60,988 bases of DNA, from positions 1 to 60,988 of the IMG/VR virus record IMGVR_UViG_3300031753_000298, one strand, 5' to 3'. This document shows positions 2,264 through 60,988 of this stretch, one piece after another; position 1 is the first letter of the stretch; every line of letters begins with the position of its first letter. The position numbers and the translations under genes are program-made. Origin of the DNA: a virus. The notes under the pieces were generated by a model, which was given only the letters and a program-made list of their open reading frames with translations, did not search any database and had not been told where the DNA came from.

Positions 2264-2569
2264 ATGAAGCGGTCGAGACTCATTGGCTTGTTCGCGGGCG
2301 CCCTACTCGTCTCCTGTGTCTGTGCAGAAGGCCGCCAAGCGGCTCCTCCCCCGCCCTCCCCTCCTCCTCTTCAACACGTCGAGTACATCCTGGTCCCGAC
2401 CTGCGTGGACTCGATCGTGGTGAACACGAAGAAGTGGCATTGCGTGGTAGACAACCCTGACAACCCGACCCAGGTCGTGTGCGACCCGGACTCGATGACG
2501 GTCCTGTTCAAGAAGACGATTAAGATTCGGGATTGCGTTGAGGTCCATATCGTGATGGAGAAGAAATGA
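2264..2569 (+). CDS. Secreted or lipoprotein-like small protein
   Basis: About 101 residues. The N-terminus has a basic start, a hydrophobic core (LIGLFAGALLVS) and a Cys in a lipobox-like context (LVSC), followed by a proline-rich linker (APPPPSPPP) and a domain with four further Cys. This suggests export and anchoring in the envelope or periplasm. A GTG at 2252 is in frame but lies next to the -10 box, so the ATG at 2264 is preferred. It is the first gene of the rightward operon; its stop overlaps the next start. No family recognised; a spanin-like or exclusion role is speculation. Confidence 0.7.
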   Translation: MKRSRLIGLFAGALLVSCVCAEGRQAAPPPPSPPPLQHVEYILVPTCVDSIVVNTKKWHCVVDNPDNPTQVVCDPDSMTVLFKKTIKIRDCVEVHIVMEKK

Positions 2570-2769
2570 AGATCACCAAAGTGTCGAGCACTCGGGTGCA
2601 GTTGCTGCTGACTTTACAGCCAGAGAATGAGGCTGAAATTGCGTTGCTCACGCTCGCTTCAGGAGCGTACGGAAGTATTGCAGCACCAATCGAGACCATC
2701 ACTGACAGAGACAACCCCGAAAAAGAAGGAACGTCCGAGTCAGTCATTACGTTGGCGTTACGGAATTAA
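2566..2769 (+). CDS. Small hypothetical protein, 67 aa
   Basis: ATGA overlap with the preceding stop shows translational coupling. The sequence is soluble and mixed alpha/beta in character (VQLLLTLQPENEAEIALLTLA), with an acidic C-terminal half. Not recognised. Confidence 0.65.
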   Translation: MKITKVSSTRVQLLLTLQPENEAEIALLTLASGAYGSIAAPIETITDRDNPEKEGTSESVITLALRN

Positions 2770-2771
2770 AT

Positions 2772-3083
2772 ATGACCTCCCTCACCGGCCCAAACTGGGG
2801 AACCGATAAACGCCTCTGGCCCGGCCTGATAGCCCGCATCCAGAATTGGGGTAGCTTCCTCTCGAACTACCCGCCGCCCTCACTCACGCTAGAGTTCCTG
2901 GGCTTCCGCCTGAACATTCCGTGGACGCCGGTGTATGTACGTCCGGACTGGAAAGTTCCGTACTGGTCCCCGCGCTACCTCTGCATCCGTTGGCACCTGT
3001 TCCGTTACGACGCGTACGCGCGCGAGTACATCTTCATCAGCGCGATGGCGAAGCGGGTTCCGATCTTTGAGGTGATGCCGTGA
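2772..3083 (+). CDS. Hypothetical protein rich in Trp/Tyr/Pro, 103 aa
   Basis: Follows the previous stop by two bases. The protein is unusually rich in aromatic residues and proline (PWTPVYVRPDWKVPYWSPRY), suggesting a compact fold or surface-binding protein. Its stop overlaps a GTG start downstream. Not recognised. Confidence 0.65.
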   Translation: MTSLTGPNWGTDKRLWPGLIARIQNWGSFLSNYPPPSLTLEFLGFRLNIPWTPVYVRPDWKVPYWSPRYLCIRWHLFRYDAYAREYIFISAMAKRVPIFEVMP

Positions 3084-3832: not shown

Positions 3833-3836
3833 GACC

Positions 3837-4289
3837 ATGAAAACATTCTCTCTACTCTTCATCCTCCTGTGCAGCCTGCCGGCTCTCGCGCAGACTGAGC
3901 CAACTCCGCCCGCGTTTATTTATGTGTGTCCTCCGCCATCAAAGAAGCCTTGCGTCACTTACTCCGTCTCTGTGCAGAGCACTCCAATCATGAATGGAGA
4001 GCCTCTGCTTGGCCAAACAAATCGGAACAACAGAACAATAAAACTTTACCGTCACCCCGACAACTTCATCTTCGCCGCGACTCTCCTGCATGAGTGCATG
4101 CACGCCGTGCTCTATGAGGGCCACATGATTCATCAGGATGGATGGGATAGCGAGCGGATGTACGCGCACGACTTCATCTACAGGATCGAGCCTGGTCTGA
4201 CCCGATTGATTCAGGATAATCCCGCGCTCATCTCGTTTATAAATGAGGCCCGGAACAAGAGTGGGGCGAGGGCGGACGACCGTGAGTAG
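3837..4289 (+). CDS. Exported putative zinc metallopeptidase (HExxH)
   Basis: 150 residues from the ATG at 3837, which begins a signal peptide (MKTFSLLFILLCSLPALAQ; cleavage expected after ALA). The mature part contains LLHECMHAVLYEGH, an H-E-x-x-H zinc site, in the second half, with several further His (HMIH, HDF) that could serve as the third ligand. A role in envelope remodelling is plausible but not shown. An in-frame upstream start at 3804 lies inside the preceding gene and is less likely. Its 3' end overlaps the next gene. Confidence 0.6.
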   Translation: MKTFSLLFILLCSLPALAQTEPTPPAFIYVCPPPSKKPCVTYSVSVQSTPIMNGEPLLGQTNRNNRTIKLYRHPDNFIFAATLLHECMHAVLYEGHMIHQDGWDSERMYAHDFIYRIEPGLTRLIQDNPALISFINEARNKSGARADDRE

Positions 4290-4791: not shown

Positions 4792-4816
4792 TTGCAGGTG
4801 ATGTTATTCTCTCCTC

Positions 4817-5515: not shown

Positions 5516-5676
5516 ACACAGTGTTAGGTTACGTCCTTATCTGGATCAGCGGTCTCGCTTGCGGCTTTGGGTTCCGCGGTGTCATTGATCGTCTGATTCA
5601 CAGCGCTGAAGCCAAAGTTCAAGCTGAAAAAGCTGCGTTGATTCAGGCTGCACAGCAAGTGGAGAAGAAACTCTAA
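5512..5676 (+). CDS. Small membrane-anchored coiled-coil protein, 54 aa
   Basis: ATGA overlap with the upstream gene and a one-base overlap with the downstream gene. One membrane span (VLGYVLIWISGLACGFGF) followed by an amphipathic helix (HSAEAKVQAEKAALIQAAQQ). Function unknown. Confidence 0.6.
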   Translation: MNTVLGYVLIWISGLACGFGFRGVIDRLIHSAEAKVQAEKAALIQAAQQVEKKL

Positions 5677-6038
5677 TGGGAGGCTTCGCAGGTATCCTCG
5701 GCGGCGTCGGCAAGGCTCTCGCGAGTCCGATGGCGCAGAAGCTCGGCCAGGCCGCCGGCAAGGTAGGCACCCAACTCTCTCCGGGACTTCAGCCTGCACA
5801 GTCGAACGACATGGCGATGCAGGGACCGCAGAATACGATGGGTCCGACTCAATCTTCCTCTCCTGTGCAGGGCTTAGGCCAAGGTCTCGCGAATATCCGG
5901 CAGGCTCTCGCGCTACGCCAATCTCGTCTGAACCCGACCTCGATCGGAGCGCCCCAGAATTTAGGGATCGGGAGCGGTAACGGAATCCCTAACCCGTCTC
6001 AGGGTTACGGCCCGGAGTCAGTAAGAGTAGGACCGTGA
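5676..6038 (+). CDS. Hypothetical Gly/Gln-rich protein, probable virion component
   Basis: 120 residues of low complexity, rich in Gly, Gln, Pro and Ser, with a short N-terminal amphipathic segment (GILGGVGKALASPMAQKLGQ). The make-up resembles the other disordered late proteins of this phage (7022, 27713). Not recognised. Confidence 0.6.
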   Translation: MGGFAGILGGVGKALASPMAQKLGQAAGKVGTQLSPGLQPAQSNDMAMQGPQNTMGPTQSSSPVQGLGQGLANIRQALALRQSRLNPTSIGAPQNLGIGSGNGIPNPSQGYGPESVRVGP

Positions 6039-6274
6039 TGCCCGGAATTTCGCAGGGCGGAGGATCGAGCACGGATCAATTCCCCAAGCCTCTTCGCCGA
6101 ACCAAAACTGACGAGTTCGAAAACTGGCAAAACAGCTCACTGGGTTCTTACCCTCACTCCGGTCAGGGCGGACTGAGCGGAATCACGCCGGCCGTTCTGC
6201 AAGCCAAGCTCCGCGCTCAGCAAGCATCATCTCCTGTGCAGAAGACCGGCTTGAACGGAATTCGTGTACAATAA
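6038..6274 (+). CDS. Small disordered hypothetical protein, 78 aa
   Basis: TGATG overlap with the upstream stop; a GTG at 6035 is also possible. Ser/Gly/Gln-rich. Contains one CTGTGCAG copy (6234-6241) read as SPVQK. Not recognised. Confidence 0.55.
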   Translation: MPGISQGGGSSTDQFPKPLRRTKTDEFENWQNSSLGSYPHSGQGGLSGITPAVLQAKLRAQQASSPVQKTGLNGIRVQ

Positions 6275-6291
6275 TTCTTGCGAGGTAAAGT

Positions 6292-6495: not shown

Positions 6496-6521
6496 TGGTA
6501 GAATGAAATAGGAGATTCGTT

Positions 6522-6767: not shown

Positions 6768-6776
6768 GGAGTCTTT

Positions 6777-10649: not shown

Positions 10650-11040
10650 GGACGCGATAAGGGAGCAATTGTGGCGCTTCCGCGAGACCTCCTGGGTCGC
10701 TTCGTCTGCACAGTTGGATAAGCGAATTGCGCAGCTTGAGCGCGAGATCGAGTATTACCGGCGCCGGTTCGATGAGGCCCAGGAGCGCGCGGATCGCCAG
10801 CTCGATGAGTTCATGCAGGCGAACGGGATGGGCGAGGTGACGACGACGGCGCGCAGGGACGCGAGCGAGAAGTCTGCTTCTGTGCAGAAGGAGATGGATG
10901 CTCAGAAGAAGGAGATCGGGGAGATGTTCGCCGAGACCCTTGGAACCGAGCATGACGAATTTGGGTTAGAATTACCAGAGGATTTACATGATGCCGCTGC
11001 TGCGCTCATGAGTGTGCCGACCCAGAAGAAAGCGAGCTAA
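10609..11040 (+). CDS. Coiled-coil protein preceding the portal, 143 aa
   Basis: Residues about 30-75 form a long charged coiled coil (QLDKRIAQLEREIEYYRRRF). The start, with GAGAGGAAGG upstream, lies inside the previous gene in another frame. Position between terminase and portal suggests a packaging or assembly accessory; no family recognised. Confidence 0.65.
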   Translation: MKRILGFHVYGKSEDAIREQLWRFRETSWVASSAQLDKRIAQLEREIEYYRRRFDEAQERADRQLDEFMQANGMGEVTTTARRDASEKSASVQKEMDAQKKEIGEMFAETLGTEHDEFGLELPEDLHDAAAALMSVPTQKKAS

Positions 11041-11043: not shown

Positions 11044-13407
11044 GTGGCGGAATTTAACGAAGAAGACGACAAAGAACTCGAAGGTGATGAGAAAGATGCG
11101 GCTGCGGGTAAAGATCCCTATCAAGACACGCAAGCTATCTCGGCGCGAATCGATCGCTGCCTCTCCATTGATCGTTTCCAGCGATCCCTCTTCGAGCGTG
11201 AATGGTTCCGTAACGTTCTCTTTATCGCCGGACAGCAATGGGTTATTTACGAACGTGGACGCTGGCGCCCGCGCTCGCTGCCCGCATGGTTTCCGCGCGC
11301 CCAGACGAACAAGTTCGCCGAGAAGTACAACGATGTAGTCGCGCAGCTCATTCAAGGTCACCGTGTTCCGATCACGTATCTGCCCGCGAAGGACGATCCC
11401 GAAGACATCGCGACCGCTGAAGTGGGTCAACGTCTGCGCGAAGTCTTCTACGCCGAAACTGAAGTTGACGAGAAAGAATCCGAGATTGCAGCTTGGCTCG
11501 TCGCGACAGGCAACGCCTTCCTCATTCCCTATTACGACATGGACAAGGAGTACGGCACGACGTTCGTGCAGCACCAAACGTGCGATCACTGCGGAGCCGT
11601 CCTGACTCCCGAGGATCTCGCGTCCGCGGACGGCGGCTGTCCTGAATGCGCGGAGAACGGCGACTTTCACAAAGAACTCACTCCTGCACAGGATCAAAAT
11701 GGAAACGCAATCGGTGATGAGTACCCGATCGGCGCGATGCAGGCTGATGTGTGCGGGCCGTTCGAGATCCGGCTGGATCACCGCATCACGTCGATAAAGG
11801 AGCAACGTCGCTTCATCCGCCAACGTCGGTACGATCTGGATTTTGCAAAAGAGAAGTGGGATCAATTCGCAGATGTGATTAAATCGGACTGGGGGAATGA
11901 TCTCTCTCAGTACTATCTCGATGTCATGGCGCACGTCACTTCGTCGTTCTCTGCTTCTGGCGGCTTTATCGGCGGTGGACCGGCTGCACCGAAGAATCCT
12001 AAAGTCACTGCTTACGAGTTTTTTGAACTCCCCACAAAGAAGTTCCCCAAAGGACTCCGCGCGGTCCGACTCGGAGCGAACGCCCAAGCCATAGTCGAAG
12101 CCGGGCCTCTCCCCACGAAATTCGGGGCCGGCGTGCGCAAGAATCAGTACTTCCTTCCGCTCGTCCACTTCGGATTCGACAAGATTCCGGGCCGATTCTG
12201 GCGCAAGACTCGTTTGGATGACTTAGTTCCGCTCCAGATCTTCCGCAACACGGTCGAGGCGAACCTCCGTCTGTCTGCACAGAGGATGGGGAACGCGATC
12301 TGGCTCAATCCGAAGGGTTCCGGAGTGGATTTGATCACCGGTGAGCCTGGCCAGCATATCACGTACAACCCGATCTCACTCGGCGGCAGTTCGATCGCTA
12401 AGCCCGAGCGTGTTCCGGCCGAACTGAATAACGTTCAGCCTCTCATCATGCTCATGAACAAGATCGATGACTCGATGGAGAGGGTCGCCGGCACTTTCTT
12501 CCTTCAGGGCGGCGATACTCCGCCCGGAGTGACCGCGGCGAGCGCTCTGGCCTACCTCGGCGAGCGGTCCCAGAAGGCTATCGCGCCGCTGATGGCTGAA
12601 TACGCAAAGGGCTGGCGCCAGTTTGAGTACATGGCGCTCGAAATCGCGCGTGACAACTGGGACGAGACCCGGATGCGCGTGATTACGGGCAAAAACAAGA
12701 AGTGGCAGACTATGAAGTTCACGAAGGCTGATCTGCAGGGCGCCGTGAACCTCGTGATTGACTACAACGGGATGTTCCCCAAGTCGAACGCGACCGAGCG
12801 AGCCACGATTCAGCAGCTTGTGCAGATGGGCGTGATCAATCCGCAGGATCCCGAGATCGGGATGGGTATCTTGAAAGTGTTCGGCGAGATGGCGATTACG
12901 GGTTCGGCTTCGATCGATGTGGAGGACGCGACGAAGGAGCAGGATGCGTTTATGACGGATCCTAACTTCATCCCGCAGATCCGCCCGATGGTGGACAACA
13001 GCAAGGTTCATCTCTTGCTCCACACGGATCTTGCCAAATCGGATGAGTTCCGTGAGTTACCTCCGGAGCGTCAGCAAGTCTGGATCGCTCACATCCAGAA
13101 TACGGTCACCGATATGGTTGCGCGGCAGCTCGCGCTCGAAAGCGCCGGTTTCAACGATCAAGCCAATGAGGAGATGCCGAGCGGCCAGGCTCAGGATGCG
13201 GCCCAAGCGGTTGCGGGCGCGCAGAACGGTGCGGCGGGTCTTCCGGGTAATCCCGAAGAGGCCGGCCAGCCTGTAGGTCCGCCCCAGACTCCCGATATCG
13301 CCGCGGGTTCGACTGGGCCAGGGACGAATCCGGACAAAATCGACGTAGGCACGAACCGCTCGATCAACCTCCCCAAAGGTCCGGGCGGCCCAACGATGGT
13401 TCAGTAG
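11044..13407 (+). CDS. Portal protein (podovirus/P22-like)
   Basis: 787 residues, the usual size of large short-tailed-phage portals. Recognisable features: an acidic start, RCLSIDRFQRSLFEREWFRN-like helix, FIAGQQW, TNKFAEKYNDVVAQLIQGHRVP, a long wing/stem region (LDDLVPLQIFRNTVEANLRL, NKIDDSMERVAGTF, TPPGVTAASALAYLGERSQ) and a disordered Gly/Pro/Gln-rich tail. A Cys-x2-Cys...Cys-x2-Cys insert (CDHCG...CPEC, about residues 178-197) looks like a zinc ribbon and is unusual. The portal forms the dodecameric ring through which DNA enters and leaves the head. GTG start, 3 bases after the previous stop. Confidence 0.88.
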   Translation: MAEFNEEDDKELEGDEKDAAAGKDPYQDTQAISARIDRCLSIDRFQRSLFEREWFRNVLFIAGQQWVIYERGRWRPRSLPAWFPRAQTNKFAEKYNDVVAQLIQGHRVPITYLPAKDDPEDIATAEVGQRLREVFYAETEVDEKESEIAAWLVATGNAFLIPYYDMDKEYGTTFVQHQTCDHCGAVLTPEDLASADGGCPECAENGDFHKELTPAQDQNGNAIGDEYPIGAMQADVCGPFEIRLDHRITSIKEQRRFIRQRRYDLDFAKEKWDQFADVIKSDWGNDLSQYYLDVMAHVTSSFSASGGFIGGGPAAPKNPKVTAYEFFELPTKKFPKGLRAVRLGANAQAIVEAGPLPTKFGAGVRKNQYFLPLVHFGFDKIPGRFWRKTRLDDLVPLQIFRNTVEANLRLSAQRMGNAIWLNPKGSGVDLITGEPGQHITYNPISLGGSSIAKPERVPAELNNVQPLIMLMNKIDDSMERVAGTFFLQGGDTPPGVTAASALAYLGERSQKAIAPLMAEYAKGWRQFEYMALEIARDNWDETRMRVITGKNKKWQTMKFTKADLQGAVNLVIDYNGMFPKSNATERATIQQLVQMGVINPQDPEIGMGILKVFGEMAITGSASIDVEDATKEQDAFMTDPNFIPQIRPMVDNSKVHLLLHTDLAKSDEFRELPPERQQVWIAHIQNTVTDMVARQLALESAGFNDQANEEMPSGQAQDAAQAVAGAQNGAAGLPGNPEEAGQPVGPPQTPDIAAGSTGPGTNPDKIDVGTNRSINLPKGPGGPTMVQ

Positions 13408-13612: not shown

Positions 13613-13917
13613 TGTTCGAGAAAACCAAGTTTGACTCGAAGTACTCCGAAGCCGGCACGCTGGTCGCTGGATACATCGAGAATGGTAAACAGCACTGTGC
13701 AGACTGTATTCACACGAAGGAGAAGGGCGTCAACATCTGCGTTCATCCTGTTGTTTTGGTCGATCCGGAGTTGAAGGCTCGCCAGATCAAGAGCGCGGAT
13801 GGCTCAGTAAATGGTGTTACAATTAGTCTCGAACGCGGTTGCTGCCGTTTTGTCAAAAAGCCGTGGCGGAATCCGCACAAACTTTTGAACTACATCGCTT
13901 CGGCGACCAAGGAGTAA
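13612..13917 (+). CDS. Cys-rich hypothetical protein, 101 aa
   Basis: Begins MFEKTKFDSKYSEAG. Contains C-A-D-C, C-V-H-P and a C-C-R-F near the C-terminus, a possible metal site. One CTGTGCAG copy (13695-13702) encodes the CAD residues. Not recognised. Confidence 0.65.
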   Translation: MFEKTKFDSKYSEAGTLVAGYIENGKQHCADCIHTKEKGVNICVHPVVLVDPELKARQIKSADGSVNGVTISLERGCCRFVKKPWRNPHKLLNYIASATKE

Positions 13918-14492: not shown

Positions 14493-14722
14493 GTGTTGAA
14501 TCAAACAAGGATTTCCTCTATTGGGTTGCGAGTCAGTTTTCTCCTTCTCATGCTGGCCACATAGCCGATCGGCTAAAGCAGATCGCCGATGATTACTTTA
14601 GTGATCCATCTCCCGAACAAATCGAAGCCGAACCCTCAACTCCTGTGCAGCCTGCCCAGCAAGAAGCGCCTTCTGCACAGAGCGAAGAAGGGATCGAGGA
14701 AGCATCCGATCCACAGGAGTAA
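14489..14722 (+). CDS. Acidic hypothetical protein, 77 aa
   Basis: The ATG at 14489 overlaps the upstream stop. N-terminal helix (NKDFLYWVASQFSPSHAGHIADRLKQIADDYF) and a disordered acidic tail carrying two CTGTGCAG-type copies (14643, 14673). Not recognised. Confidence 0.6.
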   Translation: MSVESNKDFLYWVASQFSPSHAGHIADRLKQIADDYFSDPSPEQIEAEPSTPVQPAQQEAPSAQSEEGIEEASDPQE

Positions 14723-14875: not shown

Positions 14876-15043
14876 GTGCCGCTAAGTAAGTATAATGCGG
14901 AGTTCGGCGGGAAACCTGGGTCTGCACAGAAAGCACACTCTGCAATGATTCAGGAGTACGGAGACAAAAAGGGCGAGTCCGTGTTCTACGCCACGAAAAA
15001 CAAGAAACTCTCTGGCGGACTGAACGATGTAAGGAAGAAGTAA
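14876..15043 (+). CDS. Small conserved-looking phage protein, 55 aa
   Basis: GTG start one base after the previous stop, with GGTGGAGGG upstream. Sequence: AEFGGKPGSAQKAHSAMIQ...GESVFYATKNKK, a motif string common in small phage proteins. TAATG overlap with the next gene. Role unknown. Confidence 0.6.
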   Translation: MPLSKYNAEFGGKPGSAQKAHSAMIQEYGDKKGESVFYATKNKKLSGGLNDVRKK

Positions 15044-15156: not shown

Positions 15157-15350
15157 CCCCTCCGATCACGCCTGGTCCGCAGGCCGGTCTCGCAGCAGTC
15201 AAGCCGAAGCCCAAAACGAAACTCGGGTTGCGCCCCAAGACTTCGATCTATCTCTCGGATCAGAAAGTATCCCCGTCTGCTGCACAGGACAAAGCAACGA
15301 TCCGACAATGGCGTGCTCAGCAGCAACCGATCCCAGAGAAGCAAATCTAA
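15153..15350 (+). CDS. Small basic Pro-rich protein, 65 aa
   Basis: Coupled by ATGA overlap. Proline- and lysine-rich (AAVKPKPKTKLGLRPK). Last gene before an operator and a new transcription unit. Not recognised. Confidence 0.55.
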   Translation: MTPPITPGPQAGLAAVKPKPKTKLGLRPKTSIYLSDQKVSPSAAQDKATIRQWRAQQQPIPEKQI

Positions 15351-15458: not shown

Positions 15459-15911
15459 ATGATCAAGATTCGAAACGAAGGCGAGATTCTTATCAGCCTG
15501 CAGATCAACGGCACGCAAACTATTGCTGCCGGTGGCGTTGCCACTACAGATTCTGCTGTAATTCCCTTTGCAAGCCGCCTTAAGGCTATTCTTGCTCGTG
15601 AAGGCGTGGCTGGAACTGGAACCACAGCAACCGCTGATATCTTGAAGAACGGCGTGACAATGGTTAGCTCAGGCACTTTGCTGAGCTATGCTGGGGGGAC
15701 GAACGTCCCAACATACTCAGCGAACCTTTCGCCGAATCCCCCGACTTTTGCAAAAGGCGATGTTGTGCAGTTGAAGAACATTGCTGTCAATGGCACGACT
15801 GCAGCCGTGGATCAAACCGTGATTTTGGTGCTTGAGCGAGCGCGAGCAGGTTCGTGGAATGATCCTGTGCAGTTCGATACGCTTGGTGCGGACAGCGACG
15901 CTATTAGCTAA
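15459..15911 (+). CDS. Putative capsid decoration / head-associated protein, 150 aa
   Basis: Beta-rich and Thr/Ala/Gly-rich with no Cys (EILISLQINGTQTIAAGG..., DILKNGVTMVSSGTLLSY). It is placed just before the scaffold and major capsid genes, where head decoration proteins often lie, and has a strong ribosome binding site and a stabilising-type leader hairpin, all consistent with high expression. No family match; the call is positional. Confidence 0.4.
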   Translation: MIKIRNEGEILISLQINGTQTIAAGGVATTDSAVIPFASRLKAILAREGVAGTGTTATADILKNGVTMVSSGTLLSYAGGTNVPTYSANLSPNPPTFAKGDVVQLKNIAVNGTTAAVDQTVILVLERARAGSWNDPVQFDTLGADSDAIS

Positions 15912-20546: not shown

Positions 20547-20626
20547 CGTTCTGCCCAGGCTGAAAGACTTTTCGTTGCTAACCTATCCGATCAGTCTCCT
20601 GTGCAGAACTAAGGTACAATATTCGC

Positions 20627-47339: not shown

Positions 47340-47630
47340 TTAATTGATCGGATATGCTCCGAGCTGCTCCAGCCGCCCGATCGCCTCTCCGTAACGGAAG
47401 AACACAACGCCGAACGAGATCAGCCGCATCAGATCCTGCACAGTCTCAATAGGAAACCCGGCCGTCATCCCTGCGCCCACGATCCGTTCCTTGAACGCCG
47501 GGAGCTTGATAATCGCGCCGATCTCCTGCGAGTTCGGAGCGTCCGGGCCGTGGCCTTCTTGGATCGCGCGCTCAGACATCTCGCTGATGACCGCTTCGAG
47601 CATCTCGTTTGTGAATGAGATCGCGCTCAC
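47340..47630 (-). CDS. Hypothetical protein in the replication operon, 96 aa
   Basis: GTG start overlaps the preceding stop (GTGA). Helical, with an acidic N-terminus (NEMLEAVISEMSERAIQEGHG) and FPIETVQDLMRLISFGVVFFRYGE. One CTGTGCAG copy (47436). Not recognised. Confidence 0.6.
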   Translation of the reverse strand: MSAISFTNEMLEAVISEMSERAIQEGHGPDAPNSQEIGAIIKLPAFKERIVGAGMTAGFPIETVQDLMRLISFGVVFFRYGEAIGRLEQLGAYPIN

Positions 47631-48706
47631 TTGGTCTCCTGCTTCGCGGCCTGCACTTTAGCCCAGAGTTGCGCGAGATTCATGGGTTCCTTGGGCTGGA
47701 GCACGGGCGGCATCCGCATCGCGAGTTCTTTGGGGAGCTTGATCTTCGCGAAGAGTTCTCTCTTGTATATCTGTTCCTTCCCCTTATCGTCTTTCTTCTT
47801 GTACTGCAGATACTGCGGGGTCGTGATGAACTTGCCCTGGCCGCCGCCGTAGAAGCTCGACTTGTCCATGAACAGGACGTACTCAAGCTCGGCGGTGAGC
47901 AGGAGCCGCGCGCCGGTCGGAAGATCCGGACCCATCGCTTCTTCGTTCGCAACCGGGGTCTCGTACTTCTTCGCGAGCGCTGTGAATATCGTGTGCATGC
48001 GGCGATTCTTCAGGCTGATGAGCAGATCGCGTAGGTTATCATTTACGGCTTTGTAGACCTGGCGCCCATCTTTCCGTTCGCGCCCGTCATCTGTCGTCTC
48101 GTTCTCATCCACTAACTGATTCGCGCCCTCGGTCATGTCGTCGATCTGCAGGACGGCGTTTCCATCCGGAGACGCGAGCCGATCCGCCCACTCAGGGAAC
48201 CCGATGTGCCGCGCGAGCTGATCGGGAAACTGCAACGCCCACGAGAGCGCCGCGCCATCCGTAATCTGCGCGACCCGATAACCTTGATTCTTGAGCGGGA
48301 GCATCTGCTCCTGCGCGCGAGTCAGGATGATTAGGGTGCGCTCGGGTCCGCCGAACTCGGCGGCAGTGGTCGTTTTCCTGCTGTCGGTTTCCCCATACAG
48401 TAAGCAATGAAGGAACCCGGACTCTAGCCCCTTCGTGTTAAATCCGACGATCCCTTTGGGCACCGTCATCTTCGCGCCGACCGCGGCGTTCACGCCGGCC
48501 GCAATTGAGGAGGGCTGCTGCACAGACAAAGAAGGGTGAGCGGTAGCTCCAGAAGGCATAGTTACGCTGGATTGAACGGCGCGAATCGTGCCGACCGCGG
48601 TGGGGGCAACTGAAGGAGACACTTTAGGGACGGTTATCCCATTCGGCTGAGCCGGTGTTCCAGGTTGCCCCACAGTCGATGTAGGGGAATCAGGAGAAGG
48701 GGTCAT
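47627..48706 (-). CDS. Sak4-like RecA-type ATPase (AAA_24), degenerate P-loop
   Basis: 359 residues. A disordered Pro/Ser/Thr-rich N-terminal 90 residues precede the ATPase domain: LLYGETDSRKTTTAAEF as P-loop (canonical GxxxxGK-[ST] has RK here), TLIILTRAQEQM, VLQIDDMTEGA as Walker B, and LLISLKNRRMHTIFTALAKKYE. The domain order fits phage Sak4/AAA_24 recombinases, which anneal single strands. It sits between SSB-like and small genes in the operon led by promoter P4. Confidence 0.7.
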   Translation of the reverse strand: MTPSPDSPTSTVGQPGTPAQPNGITVPKVSPSVAPTAVGTIRAVQSSVTMPSGATAHPSLSVQQPSSIAAGVNAAVGAKMTVPKGIVGFNTKGLESGFLHCLLYGETDSRKTTTAAEFGGPERTLIILTRAQEQMLPLKNQGYRVAQITDGAALSWALQFPDQLARHIGFPEWADRLASPDGNAVLQIDDMTEGANQLVDENETTDDGRERKDGRQVYKAVNDNLRDLLISLKNRRMHTIFTALAKKYETPVANEEAMGPDLPTGARLLLTAELEYVLFMDKSSFYGGGQGKFITTPQYLQYKKKDDKGKEQIYKRELFAKIKLPKELAMRMPPVLQPKEPMNLAQLWAKVQAAKQETK

Positions 48707-49004: not shown

Positions 49005-49017
49005 TGTCAATTTGACA
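49005..49017. promoter_or_regulatory. Operator O4 (TGTCA-N3-TGACA dyad)
   Basis: TGTCAATTTGACA, overlapping the stop codon of the nuclease gene and sitting upstream of promoter P4. The distance to -35 (7 bases) is close to that at O1 (8 bases), which is why an activator-type arrangement is considered. Confidence 0.7.
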
Positions 49018-49990
49018 CGTTCTGCTGTTCCTTCACTTGCTTGTAAAATTCCGCGACGCCCGCATGCAATGCGGTCCCGATCTGCAGTTCGATCTGCTCC
49101 TCTTTGTCGCTGAAGAGACCATTGATCAAGCGGTACTTTTCGAGACACTGGGACGCGAGTGAGTACTGACTCGCGCTGATGATCACTACGTCCGGATCCG
49201 CGAGCTTTTCCGGATCGATATGGATCAAGGAGAGCTGCGTCGCTGGGTCGGTCGGGTCGAACTTCGCGATGGCTTTGTCGTTATCCTCAAGCACAGTCGG
49301 ATGCACATGCTTCGAGCAATACTTCCCGAAGAACTGGCACTCCCGATTGAAGCTGTGACACTGCATGCCGGGAAGCTGCCACGGAACCAGCCCGGACCGG
49401 CGTGCGCATCGGATCTGCGCCGCCTTCGCGCGATATCCGGCCGCGATATCTTCCAACTGTGCAGAACTGAACTCATACAGCTCCGGCGTGTCCGGATCGC
49501 TTGGATCCTTCGGCCAGAACCGGACCGGATTACTCTTCACCGCCGCACGGACCCGAACTCGGGGATTCTGCACAGAGAAGGAGTAGGACTCGCCGGCTTT
49601 GTCGTAGTAGGTGCCGCGGTTGAGCGCGAGAGCGTAGAGGGAGATTTGGGAGCCAGTCGAGATCTCCCGAATCCACACGGTTTCGTTCCACCAGGAGGTC
49701 TCGCGCCCCTTCGCGTCGCGGCGCGGCTCCTTCGCAGATTTCCATTCGTTGCCACGGATGCCGATGGAGTCCTGATCGATCAAATCTTGGACGCCGATCG
49801 CGACCGTTAGCTCGTCGAGCCACAGGACGAATCCGGTCTCGACCGCGAGGATCCGGTTCTGGGAGTCTTTGGCGCCGTGCGTGGAGATCCAGGCGTCAAC
49901 GAGGCCGGCGCCAGTCTCGCGCGCGACCGGGGAGATGTCGAGGGAGGCGATGCTCTGCACAATACGATTGAAGTCAATTTTTAGCGACAC
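49007..49990 (-). CDS. Fe-S PD-(D/E)XK nuclease (Cas4/RecB-like), apparently circularly permuted
   Basis: 327 residues. Found in this order: R-E-T-G (25-27 region), VETGF (50-54), AIGVQDLID (64-72, Asp 69), EWKSAKEP (82-89; E82-x-K84 in place of D-x-K), QISLYAL (Q115...Y119), Cys211, Cys218 and Cys225 as a C-x6-C-x6-C cluster, then IISASQYSLASQCLEKYRL (Cys282) and IGTALHAGVAEFY (His309). In Cas4/AddB-type proteins the SASQ...C-x2-KY and LH block comes first. The start is well supported (GTG with AAGAAGG, overlapping the upstream gene), so the order is real. Confidence 0.8.
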   Translation of the reverse strand: MSLKIDFNRIVQSIASLDISPVARETGAGLVDAWISTHGAKDSQNRILAVETGFVLWLDELTVAIGVQDLIDQDSIGIRGNEWKSAKEPRRDAKGRETSWWNETVWIREISTGSQISLYALALNRGTYYDKAGESYSFSVQNPRVRVRAAVKSNPVRFWPKDPSDPDTPELYEFSSAQLEDIAAGYRAKAAQIRCARRSGLVPWQLPGMQCHSFNRECQFFGKYCSKHVHPTVLEDNDKAIAKFDPTDPATQLSLIHIDPEKLADPDVVIISASQYSLASQCLEKYRLINGLFSDKEEQIELQIGTALHAGVAEFYKQVKEQQNVSN

Positions 49991-50180: not shown

Positions 50181-50358
50181 GTGAGTGCTCCATTTGAGTA
50201 GTTTTGAGTTCCTTCACAGGAATCGCTATTTTGTGAGGTGTGACGCCTTTATAGGCCGCGATAGGCTGCACAGAAGCTAAGCCGTTCTCATCAATGGATT
50301 TAAGATAACCCGTGCGCCATCCATCCGCGAAATATTGCACCAGATCTCCCGGCTTCAT
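50173..50358 (-). CDS. Small hypothetical protein, 61 aa
   Basis: Opens MKPGDLVQYFADGWRTGYLKSI, a beta-barrel-like fold similar to the small KOW-type protein at 60212. Overlaps both neighbours. One CTGTGCAG copy. Confidence 0.6.
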   Translation of the reverse strand: MKPGDLVQYFADGWRTGYLKSIDENGLASVQPIAAYKGVTPHKIAIPVKELKTTQMEHSRG

Positions 50359-50576: not shown

Positions 50577-50782
50577 GAGGGGTCCGGCACCTTATCGTAG
50601 ACACCCTCTTCGAATTCTGCGCGGGCGAGATTATCGAGGGCTTTGTGCCGAGCGTACGCATCGAGCACATACGCGATCTTCTGCACAGGAGTGAAGACAA
50701 GCATTTGCGCGAGGAGCTGGCCGGCAGGCGTGCCCCAGTGGAGCTGAAAATCAATCCAATCTTTCGTGTTCTGTGCAGACAT
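50570..50782 (-). CDS. Small hypothetical protein, 70 aa
   Basis: ATG at 50782 chosen: an (AG)7 purine tract 9 bases upstream could serve as ribosome binding site, and the longer in-frame start lies beyond it. Helical (DWIDFQLHWGTPAGQLLAQML). Starts MSAQ, where one CTGTGCAG copy lies. Not recognised. Confidence 0.55.
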   Translation of the reverse strand: MSAQNTKDWIDFQLHWGTPAGQLLAQMLVFTPVQKIAYVLDAYARHKALDNLARAEFEEGVYDKVPDPSC

Positions 50783-51177: not shown

Positions 51178-52146
51178 ATGAAATCCGAACTCATTCGAGC
51201 CACAAGAGCACGGTTGGCCTCTATGAAGAACAGTCCTTTTGTTGTGCAGAACTTAATCGCGGTTGGCTCAGTAAACATGCTGGTTGGAGACAGCAACGCT
51301 GGCAAAACGCCGTTCGCGATGCAGCTCGCGTTATGCGTAGCGGCGGGGATCCCGTTCCTCGGGCTGAAAACGACGCCGGGCCTCGTGCTCTACTTTGACT
51401 TCGAGAACGGGGTCGAGAAGATGATGGAGCTGTACGATCGGGTGCGTGAGGGGCTAGGGATTGCAGAGGATCTCGACACGTTCCGTCTTCTCTACTCTGG
51501 CACACGCGACGAGATCGCGAGCGATGTGCGGGAAGGTAAGCCGAGCCTGATCATCATCGATACCATGCGGTCCTTCAATCCAGACACAGAGGAAAGCAAC
51601 ACAAAGGCCGCGAACGTCATGCGTTGGCTCAAGAATCTGTCTCATGTGAACAACGGAAACGGTACGTCGTCTCTATTCCTGCATCACCCCAAAAAGGATC
51701 AGGAGAAACATGAGCGTCCAAGTCTCGACTCGACCGGCCCGATGCAGCACTGGCTTAGTTTCGTGGCTGGTGCCTCGGCGATCGTGAATCAATCCGACAC
51801 TCGGATAGGATTCGAGGCTTACGAGTCCGGCCAGGCTGAAGCAATCGTGCGCGCCACGCGCCGCGGCGAAGGAGAGTTCGGGCCGCTCAAGCTCGGCCGG
51901 ATCCGCCAGGACCAGAGCGGAGACGAATTAGCATACGTACAGATCACCGGAAAGTCGCTCTTGGGCCAGAAGTATCGCGAGGCACTGGGTCATCTACCCG
52001 AGGAGTTTCATTTCACAGACGCAGTTAAGTTGTTGGGCTGGAACAAGAAAGCCGTGTCGAACCTGCTACGAACTCTCATCTCTTCAGGGCTGCTTGAGAA
52101 GCTAGGGAAGCTAAAAACAGCCACTAAATACAAGAAAACACAATAG
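51178..52146 (+). CDS. RepA-like hexameric helicase / AAA_25 ATPase
   Basis: 322 residues, the only rightward gene in this region. Walker A VGDSNAGKTPFAMQLAL, LVLYFDFENG, Walker B PSLIIIDTMRSFN, SSLFLHHPKKD (motif 3-type), then a C-terminal winged-helix-like end (FTDAVKLLGWNKKAVSNLLRTLI). RepA-type proteins unwind DNA at plasmid and phage origins. TATAAT (51158-51163) lies 15 bases before the ATG, so the transcript has a very short leader; -35 is weak. An iteron-rich stretch follows immediately. Confidence 0.8.
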   Translation: MKSELIRATRARLASMKNSPFVVQNLIAVGSVNMLVGDSNAGKTPFAMQLALCVAAGIPFLGLKTTPGLVLYFDFENGVEKMMELYDRVREGLGIAEDLDTFRLLYSGTRDEIASDVREGKPSLIIIDTMRSFNPDTEESNTKAANVMRWLKNLSHVNNGNGTSSLFLHHPKKDQEKHERPSLDSTGPMQHWLSFVAGASAIVNQSDTRIGFEAYESGQAEAIVRATRRGEGEFGPLKLGRIRQDQSGDELAYVQITGKSLLGQKYREALGHLPEEFHFTDAVKLLGWNKKAVSNLLRTLISSGLLEKLGKLKTATKYKKTQ

Positions 52147-53245: not shown

Positions 53246-53403
53246 TGATGCTCCCCTGTTTCTTTCTTCTGCACAGACAAAAGCAGCGCGATCTCCCAGA
53301 GACCTAACATGATCTGGGAAAGGATCCGATCCTGCGTAGAATACGATCCGTCCGCGAGAGCGTGCAGGTTATCAATCTTCCTCTCGATCTCAGTTGATTC
53401 CAT
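53242..53403 (-). CDS. Small hypothetical protein, 53 aa
   Basis: ATG at 53403, 14-base overlap with the gene upstream and ATGA overlap downstream. Helical (ESTEIERKIDNLHALADG, QIMLGLWEIALLLSVQKK). One CTGTGCAG copy. Not recognised. Confidence 0.6.
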   Translation of the reverse strand: MESTEIERKIDNLHALADGSYSTQDRILSQIMLGLWEIALLLSVQKKETGEHQ

Positions 53404-54400: not shown

Positions 54401-54624
54401 AACATTCTCTCCTGTGCAGGCAGATCGTTCACGAACCGCATGAGGTTGTACATTTTGATGATTTGCCGGACCGTTAACTTGCGCCCGGTCGGAAGATCAA
54501 TCTTTGTGTCCCACACGCCCCGATCGGCGAGCTGCAGCACCATCTTGATGAGTTGCGCGCTCGTGTCGCACGTGCGGACCTGGCGCTCGGCTTGTTCGAT
54601 TTCGGAGGTAAGGTAGCGGCTCAC
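54397..54624 (-). CDS. Small hypothetical protein, 75 aa
   Basis: GTG start with AAGGAG upstream, coupled to the end of the gene before it. Helical (EIEQAERQVRTCDTSAQLIKMVLQLADRG) with a basic centre (PTGRKLTVRQIIKM). Not recognised. Confidence 0.6.
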   Translation of the reverse strand: MSRYLTSEIEQAERQVRTCDTSAQLIKMVLQLADRGVWDTKIDLPTGRKLTVRQIIKMYNLMRFVNDLPAQERML

Positions 54625-55031
54625 TTGTACTCCTTGAGTGTTCGATCTTCTGTGCAGAAGAGAACGTTTCCGTTAGATCGCGCCGCTATATCCCCATCCT
54701 TCTTCTTCGCTCGCCCTGCTCGTTCTCCCACTCTTTCTGGGCGCGTTGAAGGAACGGAGAGGTCAGGACGGCCCGATACAGACTTCTGCAAGCGTGACAA
54801 TACTGGAGAGCGGTCCGGGCGACCATGCTTAGGGTCACGCACTCTTCGCACCCGCACAGAAGATCCATTGGGGCGCGGCAACTCTTGCACTCGCGATCGC
54901 CGGGAAGAAGGGGCGGTTTCATGAGAGGATTTTACTCCTCCCACCGCACGCGAATATTCCTCATCCGTGATCGGCCGGCGCCAGGGTTTCGCGGATTCGT
55001 TTATTGAAGAGTTGTGACTATTTTGGCCCAT
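54621..55031 (-). CDS. Hypothetical polar protein, 136 aa, overlapping another frame
   Basis: ATG overlaps the gene before it by 14 bases and its stop makes a GTGA overlap with the next, exactly the packing seen throughout this operon. Opens MGQNSHNSSINESAKPWRRP and is Arg/Lys-rich later. A second reading frame (54686-54922) with a strong ribosome binding site and a Cys-rich product lies inside it; one or both may be used. Confidence 0.45.
   Translation of the reverse strand: MGQNSHNSSINESAKPWRRPITDEEYSRAVGGVKSSHETAPSSRRSRVQELPRPNGSSVRVRRVRDPKHGRPDRSPVLSRLQKSVSGRPDLSVPSTRPERVGERAGRAKKKDGDIAARSNGNVLFCTEDRTLKEYK
54686..54922 (-). CDS. Cys-rich zinc protein nested in another frame, 78 aa
   Basis: GGGAGGAG lies 11 bases before the ATG. 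The product has CKSC, CGCEEC and CHAC, a convincing zinc-binding set, and an Arg-rich end. It overlaps 54621-55031 completely in a different frame. The Cys pattern makes chance unlikely. Confidence 0.55.
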   Translation of the reverse strand: MKPPLLPGDRECKSCRAPMDLLCGCEECVTLSMVARTALQYCHACRSLYRAVLTSPFLQRAQKEWENEQGERRRRMGI

Positions 55032-55301: not shown

Positions 55302-55349
55302 TTGTCCTGTGCAGAGGGGAGGGCCGAACTTTATTCTCTCAACATGCGC

Positions 55350-55484: not shown

Positions 55485-58400
55485 ATGAAAACACTTAAGA
55501 TTTTAGGGCTGATGCTGATTTGCTTGATTGGAGCTCAGTTCGTCTCAGCTCAGGCCAACACCGGCTTCCCTCAGCACGGAACGTTCTCAAACGCTGGCGG
55601 CGGTATCGACACGATTGATTTGTCTAGTCTTAACGTTCACCTTTCTTTGCCTCTACGAAGTTTGAGCGCTGGCGATATGCCTGCGGTGGCAAAGCTAGTG
55701 GTGGACAATTCCGCTATACCCATCTCGTCTCCATTCCACTATCAATGGAACCCAGGTCTCCAGATAAATCCGAACACAATCGCATATCTCGGTAACAACA
55801 GTCCTTCCGGTTGGAAATGCGTGAACGGGCCGTTTACCGTATCCGGTGTCGTAGATTCAAACAACACGTTTCACAGCACCCCTCCTCTGACTGTGGCGTG
55901 CGGTAATTCAGGGACGACCACGCCAGGTACCGATGGATGGTCGTTAGAAGGAACGTTGAGTACTACTGGTGTGTGGACGACATTGACGGGCACCGATCCG
56001 GCAGGGAATGTATACAGCTTATTCCCCGGAACAAGTGTGACCGATCCGCATGGGAACAAAATTCAAGGATACTTTGATGTCAATTTTTGTCTCCAAGCCC
56101 GGTCATGTGGACCGCCGAACGGAGTAACATATTCCGGTTCTTTGACTGACGCCGCTAATGCCACAGTGCTGACTTCCTCGTCATCCATTGCATCGTTGAC
56201 GCCAACGGTGACTTACCCAGACGTGAACGGTGCTTCACAACCGATTACGTTGACCTATGGCCTATACAACGAGGACGCTTACTTTGGGTGCGCTGGAGAA
56301 ACGGACTATTGGGCTTCTGGCTTTGCAAATTATCTTCTAACCAGAGTAGCTTTTCCTGATGGTTCGTTCTACTCATTTGGGTATGAGCCAACGTTCAACC
56401 ATTCGACATTTACGACTGGACGTATCGCGTCTGTGACTCTTCCAACCGGCGGAATCATTCGATACGATTATTCAACCTATGGTACACACGGTCAGAATTG
56501 CAATCTCCAGCAGACTGCGGGATTCACGAAGACCACGCCGGACGGTGTGTGGAAGTTTGATAACTCCACGGGCACGAATGCGGCTCAGCACAACGTCACA
56601 GTGACCGCTCCTGATGGGACTTACACCGGATACAACTTCGATTACGAGTTTGAAACCTTGCGCCTGACCAAAACTGCTGTTGGCGGCACGACGCTCTCTA
56701 CAGTTACTACCTGCTACAACAATAATTTCACTGGATGCGCCACGTACAGCGGTCTGACAAATGGGCAAGCTATCACGCAAAAAAATGTCTACACCGACAT
56801 CGGTGCTTCGGCAGGCGCGGCCCAGGTCCAAACAAACTATGATTCCTATGGCCGGTTGACCGACGTTCGCAATTATGATTTTGGGCAGGGAGCAAATAAC
56901 TACGCCACGCATACCGCGCTTGTTTACGGTTCCTATAGCGGTGGCGTCTGCAATGCACTCACCGGCATCTTGAATCGTGTGTGCAGCACCACGGTTTTTG
57001 ATAGCTCTTCGCACATCCTGTCCTATGGTCTAGGTGTGTTCAATGCCTCGGGAGACCAAACACAACATCAGCAATTGGTCTCGGGTAACACCTATCTCAT
57101 TAGTTCCGCCTCGTACAACGCCAACGGAACCCTGCACACGACTACGGATGTTAACGGCACGATCACGAATTACACGCAGGGCGATTGTGGAGGGTTCTTT
57201 CCGACCGGCATCGCTGCTGGAGGAGTATCTCGATTCTTCGCTTGGGATTGCAATGGTGAAGTCATAAAGGCCGTAAATGACGGCAACGGTAATCCCGCGA
57301 CAGTGATCACCCATGCCGATCCTCTATGGCGACCTGATTCTGTGACTGATCCAACAGGAGCGCTAACCAGCTTCTCCTATACACCCACAAGCAGCACGTC
57401 ATCCATGTTGTTCGGGTTGAACTCACAAAACACGAGTGTGGTGACACTAGATTCGATGGGCCGTCCGTTCGACACGCAAGTTAAGAACGGGAGCACTTAC
57501 AAAACCTTCACGAGTGCGTATGATGTGAACGGGCGACCTTCTTCAACAACCCAACCGTGTTCTGTGGCTCTGGGTGCATCGTGCCCAACGGTCGAAACCA
57601 CACAGACGTATGACGGACTTAATCGACCCCTTGTGACCACAACCGCTGCGGGCGGAACCATAACGAACACGTACGCAGGGCGCGACGTATTGACTACACT
57701 CGGCCCGGCATCCACGGGAGAGAACGTCAAGAGTAAGCAGTACGAGTATGACGGGCTGGGTCGGTTGCTCTCCGTTTGCGAGATTAGCTCGATGACCGGC
57801 TCGGGTCCGTGCGGCCAGGATAGCGGCGGCACAGGGTTCCGAACAAGCTACACATATGATCCGCTGGGCCGGTTGCTGACTGTAACGCAAGGGGCGCAGA
57901 CTCGCACCTATGGCCCATACGACGGCCTGGGCCGGATGTCCCAAGAGATCAATCCAGAGAACGGAACGACCACCTACACCTACGATACAGCAGGCTGCTC
58001 AGGTACATCTAACGGCGATTTAGTTCGGCAAGCGGACGCCGTAGGCAACGTTACTTGCTACCACTACGACAATCTGCACAGAGTCACGTCTGTTACTTAT
58101 AGTGGCCCGTACCTCGCAAACACTCCCAGCAAAACGTTTGTGTATGACGCGGCGACTGTGAATGGACAGACTATGCAGAATGTCAACGGCCGTCTTGCCG
58201 AGGCTTACACAGGTGCTCGGGCTACGGACGAAGGCTTCAGCTACACAGCGCGAGGGGAGCTGGCCGACTACTACCAATCCAGCCCAACCTCGGGCGGTTT
58301 CTATCACACTGTGCAGAGCTACTGGCCGAACGGAACACTCGCGAGTATCTCCGGCGTCGGACTCCCGATCATTAACTACGGCGATATGGATGGGAGCGGC

Positions 58401-60215: not shown

Positions 60216-60445
60216 ATCGCAAGCTCCCAAGGACCGCACTCAATCGTGTCGTCGCTGGGGTCGCATGACTTGCCGTTGGTGTCGAAGCGCATACGTTCGT
60301 GAGCGTTCCATGTGCCATCGTTTTGCATCACGCCAGTTTGCACGTCCACGCCCGACGGCGTGACCTTGACCACTTTACCCTTGATGGAATAAACCCCGCT
60401 GACCACGTGAACGTCCTGACCAATCACCAATGTCTTCGTGTCCAT
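60212..60445 (-). CDS. Small beta-barrel-like protein, 77 aa
   Basis: Convergent with the RHS gene, overlapping its stop by 4 bases. Opens VIGQDVHVVSGVYSIKGKVVKVTPSGVDVQTG, a KOW-type small barrel, and ends in ECGPWELAI. A candidate RHS partner or immunity gene by position only; orientation argues against co-transcription. Function unknown. Confidence 0.6.
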   Translation of the reverse strand: MDTKTLVIGQDVHVVSGVYSIKGKVVKVTPSGVDVQTGVMQNDGTWNAHERMRFDTNGKSCDPSDDTIECGPWELAI

Positions 60446-60463
60446 AAGTCTCCCTCTTCTCCC

Positions 60464-60988
60464 TCAACTCAAAAATTTCTTGCTCAGATCTGAATCACAC
60501 TCTAACCGCGAATACATCATCGTGGCCTGGAGCGAACGGTGCCCCAACATCGCCTGCACCTCATTGATCGTCCCGAGCCGCGCCCACTTTCGTCCGCACG
60601 CGTGCCGGAATGCGTGGGGGTGACACTTGCGCAGGTCCACGTTCGCGCGCATCCCGGCATGCTGGATTTGCTGCCACAGATTCACGCGCGAGAACGGAAA
60701 GAGTCGGGCGTTCAGGAGCTTTGTTCTGCACAGAGCTTCGAGCTCGTCGCGCACTTGTGGCACGAGATACTGCCGGGTGAGCCGGCCGTTCTTCAGCCGC
60801 TGGATGACCAGCTCGCCATTCTTGATATTCTGCGGAGTCAGCATGAGCAGTTCACTTGCGCGTAAGCCGTAATGATACAGGATGCGGATGGGGAGTTTCC
60901 AGTACTCCGGCCGAACCTTCGCGATGAGCGCCTGGGCCTCAGCATCCGTGATGTAGATCCAATCGTGGGTCGGATCTTTGTATCTCAT
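60464..60988 (-). CDS. Tyrosine recombinase (integrase), N-terminus at window edge
   Basis: 174 residues visible, essentially a catalytic domain. Catalytic set: Arg in YHYGLRASELLML, His-x2-Arg in HPHAFRHACG, the LGHRS motif and Tyr in MMYSRLE. The frame is open to the last base of the window, so an N-terminal core-binding domain may lie beyond it. If the molecule is circular, the frame would continue into 69..1. Integrases recombine attP with attB for prophage insertion; no att site is recognisable here. Confidence 0.88.
   Translation of the reverse strand: MRYKDPTHDWIYITDAEAQALIAKVRPEYWKLPIRILYHYGLRASELLMLTPQNIKNGELVIQRLKNGRLTRQYLVPQVRDELEALCRTKLLNARLFPFSRVNLWQQIQHAGMRANVDLRKCHPHAFRHACGRKWARLGTINEVQAMLGHRSLQATMMYSRLECDSDLSKKFLS

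What the first reader, a model, noticed from the sequence alone, without database searches (positions are those of the whole stretch)
2320..60733. A genome-wide 8-mer, CTGTGCAG, about 35 times more frequent than chance
I count about 68 exact copies of CTGTGCAG or its complement CTGCACAG in 61 kb, against roughly 2 expected on two strands. Copies are in both orientations, on both gene strands, in several reading frames (mostly N-CT-GTG-CAG or N-CT-GCA-CAG), and some are intergenic (20599). Ala is always GCA and Val always GTG at these sites, so the signal is on DNA, not protein. Flanks prefer Y before and R after. Density is near one per kb, like uptake sequences (DUS/USS), HIP1 or stoperators. 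Copies avoid the 7.3-10.7 kb and 16.5-19.9 kb blocks and all homing-type genes. I know of no described element with this sequence.
Basis: partly seen in the sequence, partly recalled or inferred. Interest (0 to 1): 0.88.

Follow-up and report, generated by a model that had tools for sequence, protein, structure and literature searches.

The report
Primase start words across phage genomes
This soil-phage genome is studded with 70 copies of one exact 8-letter DNA word that is best explained as the landing sites where the phage's own DNA-primer-making enzyme starts copying, and other phages with related enzymes carry their own versions of the word, most of them built on TGTG.

Summary
In detail: CTGTGCAG occurs 70 times (35 per strand) against about 2 expected, and neither its mirror word nor its one-mismatch variants as a class are enriched. 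It does not look like a host signature. Of the nearest phage relatives, one (G001) has 65 copies while two (G002, G003) have 4 and 1. The only recognisable replication-enzyme gene shared by the two word-bearing phages and missing from the other two is a PrimPol-type primase (window 40288-41160, minus strand). It matches the NrS-1 phage PrimPol by sequence and, as a predicted structure, over catalytic and helix-bundle domains. The literature gives GTG as a template word of NrS-1 PrimPol and of the pRN1 primase. Across phages carrying this primase domain, the most enriched dispersed 8-mer contains TGTG in 16 of 18 primase clusters with a strong word, and in 0 of 29 control stretches. The word follows the primase tree. 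In three named phages the sites are evenly spaced. In both word-bearing phages an 8-nt pyrimidine tract lies where primer would be copied. Best explanation: CTGTGCAG is the template recognition word of the phage-encoded primase, kept at about one per 1.7 kb per strand. Biochemistry is not shown here.

The parts
40288..41160 (-). PrimPol-type primase (AEP catalytic domain plus helix-bundle domain), 290 aa; proposed reader of the word
   Evidence: phmmer to NrS-1 PrimPol 6a9w/7rr3 E about 3e-16; PHROG DNA primase E 1e-32; AlphaFold pLDDT 84, Foldseek 6a9w E 1.7e-17 over 303 columns, then pRN1 primase 9aam, 3m1m; present in G001, absent in G002 and G003
41157..43088 (-). family A DNA polymerase, gene overlapping the primase gene
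   Evidence: PF00476 E 8e-28
44814..46367 (-). UvrD-like helicase of the replication module
   Evidence: PF00580, phrog_1967
47627..48706 (-). Sak4-like AAA protein of the replication module
   Evidence: phrog_124
49007..49990 (-). PD-(D/E)XK (Cas4-like) exonuclease of the replication module
   Evidence: PF12705, phrog_69
51223..52146 (+). RepA/DnaB-like AAA ATPase with winged helix, possible separate helicase partner
   Evidence: PF13481; helicase-primase PHROGs
2320..2327 (+). CTGTGCAG
3867..3874 (+). CTGTGCAG
3970..3977 (+). CTGTGCAG
5648..5655 (-). CTGTGCAG
5794..5801 (-). CTGTGCAG
5863..5870 (+). CTGTGCAG
6234..6241 (+). CTGTGCAG
10706..10713 (-). CTGTGCAG
10880..10887 (+). CTGTGCAG
11684..11691 (-). 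CTGTGCAG
12275..12282 (-). CTGTGCAG
13695..13702 (+). CTGTGCAG
14643..14650 (+). CTGTGCAG
14673..14680 (-). CTGTGCAG
14922..14929 (-). CTGTGCAG
15280..15287 (-). CTGTGCAG
15865..15872 (+). CTGTGCAG
16498..16505 (-). CTGTGCAG
19905..19912 (+). CTGTGCAG
20144..20151 (-). CTGTGCAG
20599..20606 (+). CTGTGCAG (intergenic)
22485..22492 (+). CTGTGCAG
23283..23290 (-). CTGTGCAG
24027..24034 (-). CTGTGCAG
24755..24762 (-). CTGTGCAG
25235..25242 (+). CTGTGCAG
28035..28042 (-). CTGTGCAG
28527..28534 (-). CTGTGCAG
28857..28864 (+). CTGTGCAG
29142..29149 (-). CTGTGCAG
29921..29928 (-). CTGTGCAG
30410..30417 (+). CTGTGCAG
30845..30852 (+). CTGTGCAG
31613..31620 (+). CTGTGCAG
31769..31776 (-). CTGTGCAG
32225..32232 (+). 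CTGTGCAG
32729..32736 (-). CTGTGCAG
32897..32904 (-). CTGTGCAG
35350..35357 (+). CTGTGCAG
35584..35591 (-). CTGTGCAG
36623..36630 (+). CTGTGCAG
36755..36762 (+). CTGTGCAG
37053..37060 (+). CTGTGCAG
37321..37328 (+). CTGTGCAG
37804..37811 (-). CTGTGCAG
39794..39801 (+). CTGTGCAG
39841..39848 (-). CTGTGCAG
40618..40625 (+). CTGTGCAG, inside the primase gene
40750..40757 (-). CTGTGCAG, inside the primase gene
41436..41443 (+). CTGTGCAG
42484..42491 (+). CTGTGCAG
44149..44156 (-). CTGTGCAG
45003..45010 (+). CTGTGCAG
45201..45208 (-). CTGTGCAG
45361..45368 (-). CTGTGCAG
45777..45784 (+). CTGTGCAG
47436..47443 (-). CTGTGCAG
48518..48525 (-). CTGTGCAG
49457..49464 (+). CTGTGCAG
49568..49575 (-). CTGTGCAG
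50266..50273 (-). CTGTGCAG
50681..50688 (-). CTGTGCAG
50771..50778 (+). CTGTGCAG
53269..53276 (-). CTGTGCAG
54412..54419 (+). CTGTGCAG
54650..54657 (+). CTGTGCAG
55307..55314 (+). CTGTGCAG
58074..58081 (-). CTGTGCAG
58309..58316 (+). CTGTGCAG
60726..60733 (-). CTGTGCAG

Best explanation
CTGTGCAG, with an 8-nt pyrimidine tract on its 5' side, is the template recognition word of the phage's own PrimPol-type primase (40288-41160, minus). On single-stranded template the helix-bundle domain reads the GTG core; the enzyme starts a primer at the T just 5' of GTG and copies the CT and the pyrimidine tract into a purine-rich primer (5'-AG then mostly purines). The phage DNA polymerase extends it. Selection keeps enough sites (about 35 per strand, one per 1.7 kb) that either strand can be primed anywhere, without fixing where each site lies. 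Shown: enrichment, exactness, turnover, effect on coding, co-occurrence with the primase, family-wide TGTG words, primase fold (by prediction). Inferred: that the primase reads this word, the exact start, and use in discontinuous synthesis.
For: Word present in W (70) and G001 (65), not in G002 (4) or G003 (1); the primase is in W and G001 only, while polymerase, UDG-like, Sak4-like and exonuclease genes are in all four. Primase matches NrS-1 PrimPol N300 in sequence and predicted fold, including the helix-bundle domain, then pRN1 primase. NrS-1 PrimPol primes at GTGG/GTGA (PMC8718748) and the pRN1 helix bundle binds GTG in CTGTGCTCA (PMC11009956). Other phages with this primase: top word contains TGTG in 16 of 18 primase clusters with a strong word against 0 of 29 controls, Fisher p 1e-10; named hosts range over alpha-, beta- and gammaproteobacteria. 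Word type follows the primase tree: 4 changes against a shuffled minimum of 7, mean 10.6. Even spacing in Paracoccus R3, Halfdan and IMEAB3, p 0.003, 0.001, 0.0002. Pyrimidine tract at -8 to -1 in W and G001 regardless of coding sense. Only 6 of 31 alignable W sites are kept in G001 although totals are alike.
Against: No biochemistry. Published NrS-1 sites are shorter (GTG) or different (TTTGGTTA), and the NrS-1 genome has only two copies of TTTGGTTA (PMC7102993). Not every phage with this primase has a strong TGTG word (RHph_X3_2 has TTGTCGCC; many Bacillus-type loci have no strong word). The pyrimidine tract is not seen around TGTGGGCA. W sites are not evenly spaced. The close-relative contrast rests on only four genomes. 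Sites in both orientations are intermixed, with no lagging-strand polarity.
Confidence: 0.82

Rival explanations
1. Another phage replication or recombination protein that travels with the primase (helicase, single-strand binding protein, Sak4, Cas4-like exonuclease, polymerase) reads the word, for example as a helicase-loading site or a Chi-like recombination signal.
For: The TGTGGGCA phages share a whole replication module, and W carries UvrD-like, Sak4-like and exonuclease genes.
Against: G002 and G003 keep the polymerase, Sak4-like and exonuclease genes yet lack the word; [quoted passage not shown] GTG is the documented word of this primase fold.
Confidence: 0.1
2. Host-driven signature: a DNA uptake sequence, HIP1-like or Chi word of the host that the phage has acquired.
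For: Density near one per kb and effects on amino acids resemble uptake sequences; an RHS gene suggests an Acidobacteriota host.
Against: 46 copies in 1.57 Mb of eight Granulicella and Acidisarcina plasmids, about the chance number; TGTGGGCA recurs in phages of Paracoccus, Rhodobacter, E. coli, Achromobacter and Acinetobacter; near relatives lack the word; one-mismatch copies are not enriched. The true host genome could not be examined.
Confidence: 0.05
3. Regulatory operator or stoperator array, or a restriction/methylation site.
For: Near-palindromic, exact word in both orientations.
Against: 61 of 70 copies lie inside genes, in both orientations and mostly one codon phase; positions turn over between W and G001; no methylase or defence protein among the proteins scanned.
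Confidence: 0.02

Closest known systems
NrS-1 phage PrimPol and its template words (TTTGGTTA, GTGG/GTGA)
   Same: Same primase fold with helix-bundle domain; a word that includes GTG; priming starts mainly just 5' of the word (PMC8718748)
   Different: Here the word is a fixed 8-mer present 70 times; NrS-1 has two TTTGGTTA copies (PMC7102993). Here the primase is a separate short protein next to a family A polymerase, not fused to a helicase.
pRN1 plasmid primase (ORF904) GTG motif
   Same: GTG read by the helix bundle; the study template CTGTGCTCA shares CTGTGC with the phage word (PMC11009956)
   Different: Only the GTG triplet is described as the recognised element there; no genome-wide accumulation is reported in the papers read.
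T7 primase sites (general knowledge, not tested here)
   Same: Frequent template words that set primer starts
   Different: Unrelated primase fold and a trinucleotide GTC core.
DNA uptake sequences and HIP1 (general knowledge)
   Same: Dense dispersed words of 8-10 nt that shape codons and amino acids
   Different: Those are host chromosomal signatures; this one is tied to a phage gene and absent from near relatives.

Membership tests
PrimPol (AEP) primase of NrS-1 type | Sequence and fold match to the catalytic domain | tested here: met
PrimPol (AEP) primase of NrS-1 type | Catalytic residues: DxD and the SPSGxGxH motif | tested here: met
   D78, D80, S108, S110, H115, E147 invariant among 30 sequences
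PrimPol (AEP) primase of NrS-1 type | C-terminal helix-bundle domain that reads the template word | tested here: met
   predicted helices 188-279; Foldseek alignment to NrS-1 N300 spans 303 columns, with the two-domain pRN1 entry 3m1m also matched; relative domain orientation differs (rmsd 15)
PrimPol (AEP) primase of NrS-1 type | Primer synthesis activity | not testable with these tools
   needs purified enzyme
Primase recognition word | Contains the GTG core known for this fold | tested here: met
   CTGTGCAG contains GTG; literature
Primase recognition word | Present on both strands at spacing compatible with priming | tested here: met
   35 per strand, mean gap 1.6-1.65 kb
Primase recognition word | Primer starts map to the word | not testable with these tools
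   needs nascent-strand mapping
DNA uptake sequence | Enriched in the host chromosome | tested here: inconclusive
   not enriched in 1.57 Mb of likely-host-phylum plasmids; host itself unknown
DNA uptake sequence | Shared by DNA of the same host irrespective of phage replication genes | tested here: inconclusive
   word absent from relatives lacking the primase, whose hosts are unknown
Stoperator | Short intergenic sites, mostly oriented with transcription | tested here: not met
   61 of 70 inside genes, 29 sense and 32 antisense

The most novel reading that the evidence does not exclude
Phage-encoded PrimPol primases each use a lineage-specific 8-nt template code mostly built on TGTG, and selection has sown that word across the phage genome at priming intervals, even changing proteins to make room. 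Reading the over-represented word in a phage genome would then reveal its primase's specificity directly from sequence.
Probability: 0.72. Interest if true: 0.87.

Novelty: new variant of a known kind. Interest (0 to 1): 0.82.

Why it matters
Where a replisome starts its primers is usually worked out enzyme by enzyme. If the words seen here are primase sites, the specificity of a whole class of viral primases can be read from genome sequence, the code can be tied to helix-bundle residues by comparing lineages, and dense dispersed words in phage genomes gain a replication explanation besides uptake, recombination or regulation. It also shows a DNA-level constraint strong enough to reshape proteins, and points to sequence-specific primases that could be useful as tools.

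Tried and rejected
Host-signature idea: tested in eight Acidobacteriota plasmids, no enrichment. Two genome-contig scans (capsid profile, RHS protein) found nothing, so the host genome was not reached. A two-copy pattern scan of viral contigs found tandem repeats and chance pairs, no further strongly enriched virus. Direct relatives of the window primase by single-sequence scan: none; the profile scan then worked. First AlphaFold run with two sequences was poor, pLDDT 41, replaced by a 30-sequence run. Maximal-order Markov statistics were rejected as a test because the motif creates its own sub-words. First nucleotide mapping of G001 sites back to W was faulty for minus-strand alignments and was replaced by codon alignment. 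Avoidance of homing genes was rejected as not significant. Paper searches for the words found nothing relevant; only open-access papers were searchable.

Full report
WHAT WAS CLAIMED AND WHETHER IT IS THERE. The window (called W below) is a virus record of 60,988 bases. CTGTGCAG occurs 35 times on each strand, 70 in all, from 2320 to 60733. Markov models of order 1-3 expect 1.8-2.7 on both strands together; the mirror word occurs once. One-mismatch words sum to 58 against about 50 expected, so the signal is for the exact word; TTGTGCAG (10) is the neighbour that stands out most. Models of order 5 and 6 predict 35 and 66 copies only because the motif supplies its own sub-words, so they are no refutation.

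A DNA-LEVEL FORCE. In my gene of 70 copies are inside genes, 29 sense and 32 antisense. Nearly all use one codon phase (NCT GTG CAG or NCT GCA CAG), where the cost to the protein is least. In W, 25 of 26 [SPTA]VQ tripeptides are encoded as the word, and 29 of 53 [SPTA]AQ, against about 1.3 expected each; the tripeptides themselves are in excess (26 against 17 expected, 53 against 25), and G002 and G003 show neither effect. So the word has altered codons and also amino acids. Between W and its relative G001 (59% amino-acid identity over aligned genes) only 6 of 31 alignable W sites are conserved, above the 3.6% background for a random 8-mer but low, while totals stay alike (70 and 65). What is maintained is the number of sites, not their places.

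NOT A PROPERTY OF ALL RELATIVES. Capsid relatives in IMG/VR: G001 (capsid 83% identical) has 65 copies; G002 (81%) has 4 and G003 (76%) has 1; more distant relatives have 0-3. Comparing gene content, the four share polymerase, UDG-like, Sak4-like and exonuclease genes, but the gene at 40288-41160 (minus) is in W and G001 only. A profile of it finds nothing in G002 or G003 or in the other relatives checked, and the PHROG primase family matches its primase part in G001 alone (a more distant relative, G030, matches only the helicase part).

THE GENE IS A PRIMPOL. The 290-aa protein matches NrS-1 phage PrimPol chains at E about 3e-16 and PHROG DNA-primase families at 1e-32. It has the DxD and SPSGxGxH catalytic motifs. 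An AlphaFold model from 30 sequences has mean pLDDT 84. Its best solved matches are NrS-1 N300 (E 1.7e-17 over 303 columns, so catalytic and helix-bundle domains) and then the pRN1 primase; the high rmsd shows that the relative domain placement differs.

WHAT IS KNOWN OF ITS KIN. NrS-1 PrimPol primes at TTTGGTTA and, more efficiently, at GTGG or GTGA; the helix bundle is held responsible for reading the site, and synthesis starts mainly at the first base 5' of the word (PMC8718748). The pRN1 helix bundle reads GTG in the template CTGTGCTCA; the first primer base pairs with the T just 5' of GTG and the second with the C before it (PMC11009956). CTGTGCAG has the same CT-GTG-C arrangement.

INDEPENDENT TEST IN OTHER PHAGES. 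From named phages with homologous primases I read seven whole or nearly whole genomes without prior choice of a word. In Paracoccus R3, RcTitan, Halfdan and IMEAB3 the most over-represented 8-mer is TGTGGGCA (26, 17, 20 and 24 copies, about 20-100 fold), and in phiAxp-1 it is the overlapping CTGTGGGC with TGTGGGCA second (14 copies). Their hosts are alpha-, beta- and gammaproteobacteria, which argues against a host signature. The other two were Bacillus rho14 (no strong word by this measure) and RHph_X3_2 (a different word, TTGTCGCC). A profile scan of IMG/VR gave 80 primase-bearing loci. Taking primase clusters at 60% identity, 18 have a dispersed top word at P below 1e-6, and in 16 it contains TGTG (TGTGGGCA, TGTGGAAG, CTGTGGGC, CTGTGGAC, CTGTGCAG); of control stretches without the primase, 0 of 29 (three pieces of G001 removed; some controls are redundant, and many were fetched for carrying CTGTGCAG pairs, which biases against this result); Fisher p 1e-10. 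W and G001 themselves are two of the 18 clusters; without them it is 14 of 16. On a primase tree the word type (TGTGGG, TGTGGA, TGTGCA) needs 4 changes, and none of 300 shuffles needs fewer than 7.

GEOMETRY. TGTGGGCA sites are more evenly spaced than random in R3, Halfdan and IMEAB3 (p 0.003, 0.001, 0.0002); RcTitan and phiAxp-1 are not significant, G001 weakly so (0.03), W not. In W each strand carries a site every 1.6-1.65 kb on average, an Okazaki-like interval (inference). In W and G001 the eight bases 5' of the word are 69% pyrimidine, falling to about half at -9 and beyond, on sense, antisense and intergenic copies alike. This is the stretch a primase starting next to GTG would copy, giving a purine-rich primer of about ten bases. 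TGTGGGCA sites lack this tract, so it is lineage-specific.

MECHANISM AND CERTAINTY. I commit to the reading that CTGTGCAG is the primase's template word. Shown: the word, its exactness, coding effect and turnover; its co-occurrence with the primase; the primase family and predicted fold; the family-wide TGTG words that follow the primase tree. From literature: GTG recognition and start position for two related enzymes. Inferred: that this primase reads this 8-mer, and that the sites serve repeated priming on both strands. The main rival is another replication protein that travels with the primase; the W/G001 against G002/G003 contrast and the separate primase clade with TGTGGAAG speak against it, but only four close genomes carry that contrast.

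NOVELTY. Primase recognition words are a known kind. What I did not find described in the open-access papers searched is their growth to 8-nt, lineage-specific words sown through whole phage genomes. I therefore rate this a new variant of a known kind.

LIMITS. The host genome was not reached; the Acidobacteriota link rests on an RHS protein whose best plasmid hits are Acidisarcina. Locus-based tests mostly use stretches of 8-20 kb. Some phages with this primase lack a TGTG word (RHph_X3_2: TTGTCGCC; L141: GTGTATCC; several Bacillus-type loci), so the rule is strong but not universal.

Noticed in passing
7897-10425: Terminase large subunit interrupted by an intein-like insert (Hint-type splicing domain, residues about 456-757).
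   Followed up: no
7356-7907 and 18450-19049: Two HNH-like small proteins (judged by eye), one beside the intein-bearing terminase and one just after the capsid gene; no Pfam hit for the first.
   Followed up: no
55485-60215: Large RHS-repeat protein, absent from the related phages, with best plasmid hits in Acidisarcina polymorpha (Acidobacteriota); next to an integrase-like gene that reaches the window end (60464-60988).
   Followed up: partly
L138 (RHph_X3_2), L147 1-15144: Phages with the same primase type but with TTGTCGCC or TGTCGCCG as top word (37 dispersed copies in 50 kb of RHph_X3_2): possibly a different primase code with a GTC core.
   Followed up: no
L050, L076, L087, L122: Several viral contigs without this primase share a dispersed word CCAAAGTC (7-10 copies each, -log10P 10-13); meaning unknown.
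   Followed up: no
L013 1-12462; G003 whole: Other dispersed words in relatives without the primase: GCTGGCGC (21 copies in 12.5 kb, G005) and CGCCGGAG (26 dispersed copies in 64 kb, G003).
   Followed up: no
L127 12449-13378: The G001 primase has a four-cysteine, zinc-finger-like insertion between its two domains that the window's primase lacks, yet both phages carry the same word.
   Followed up: no
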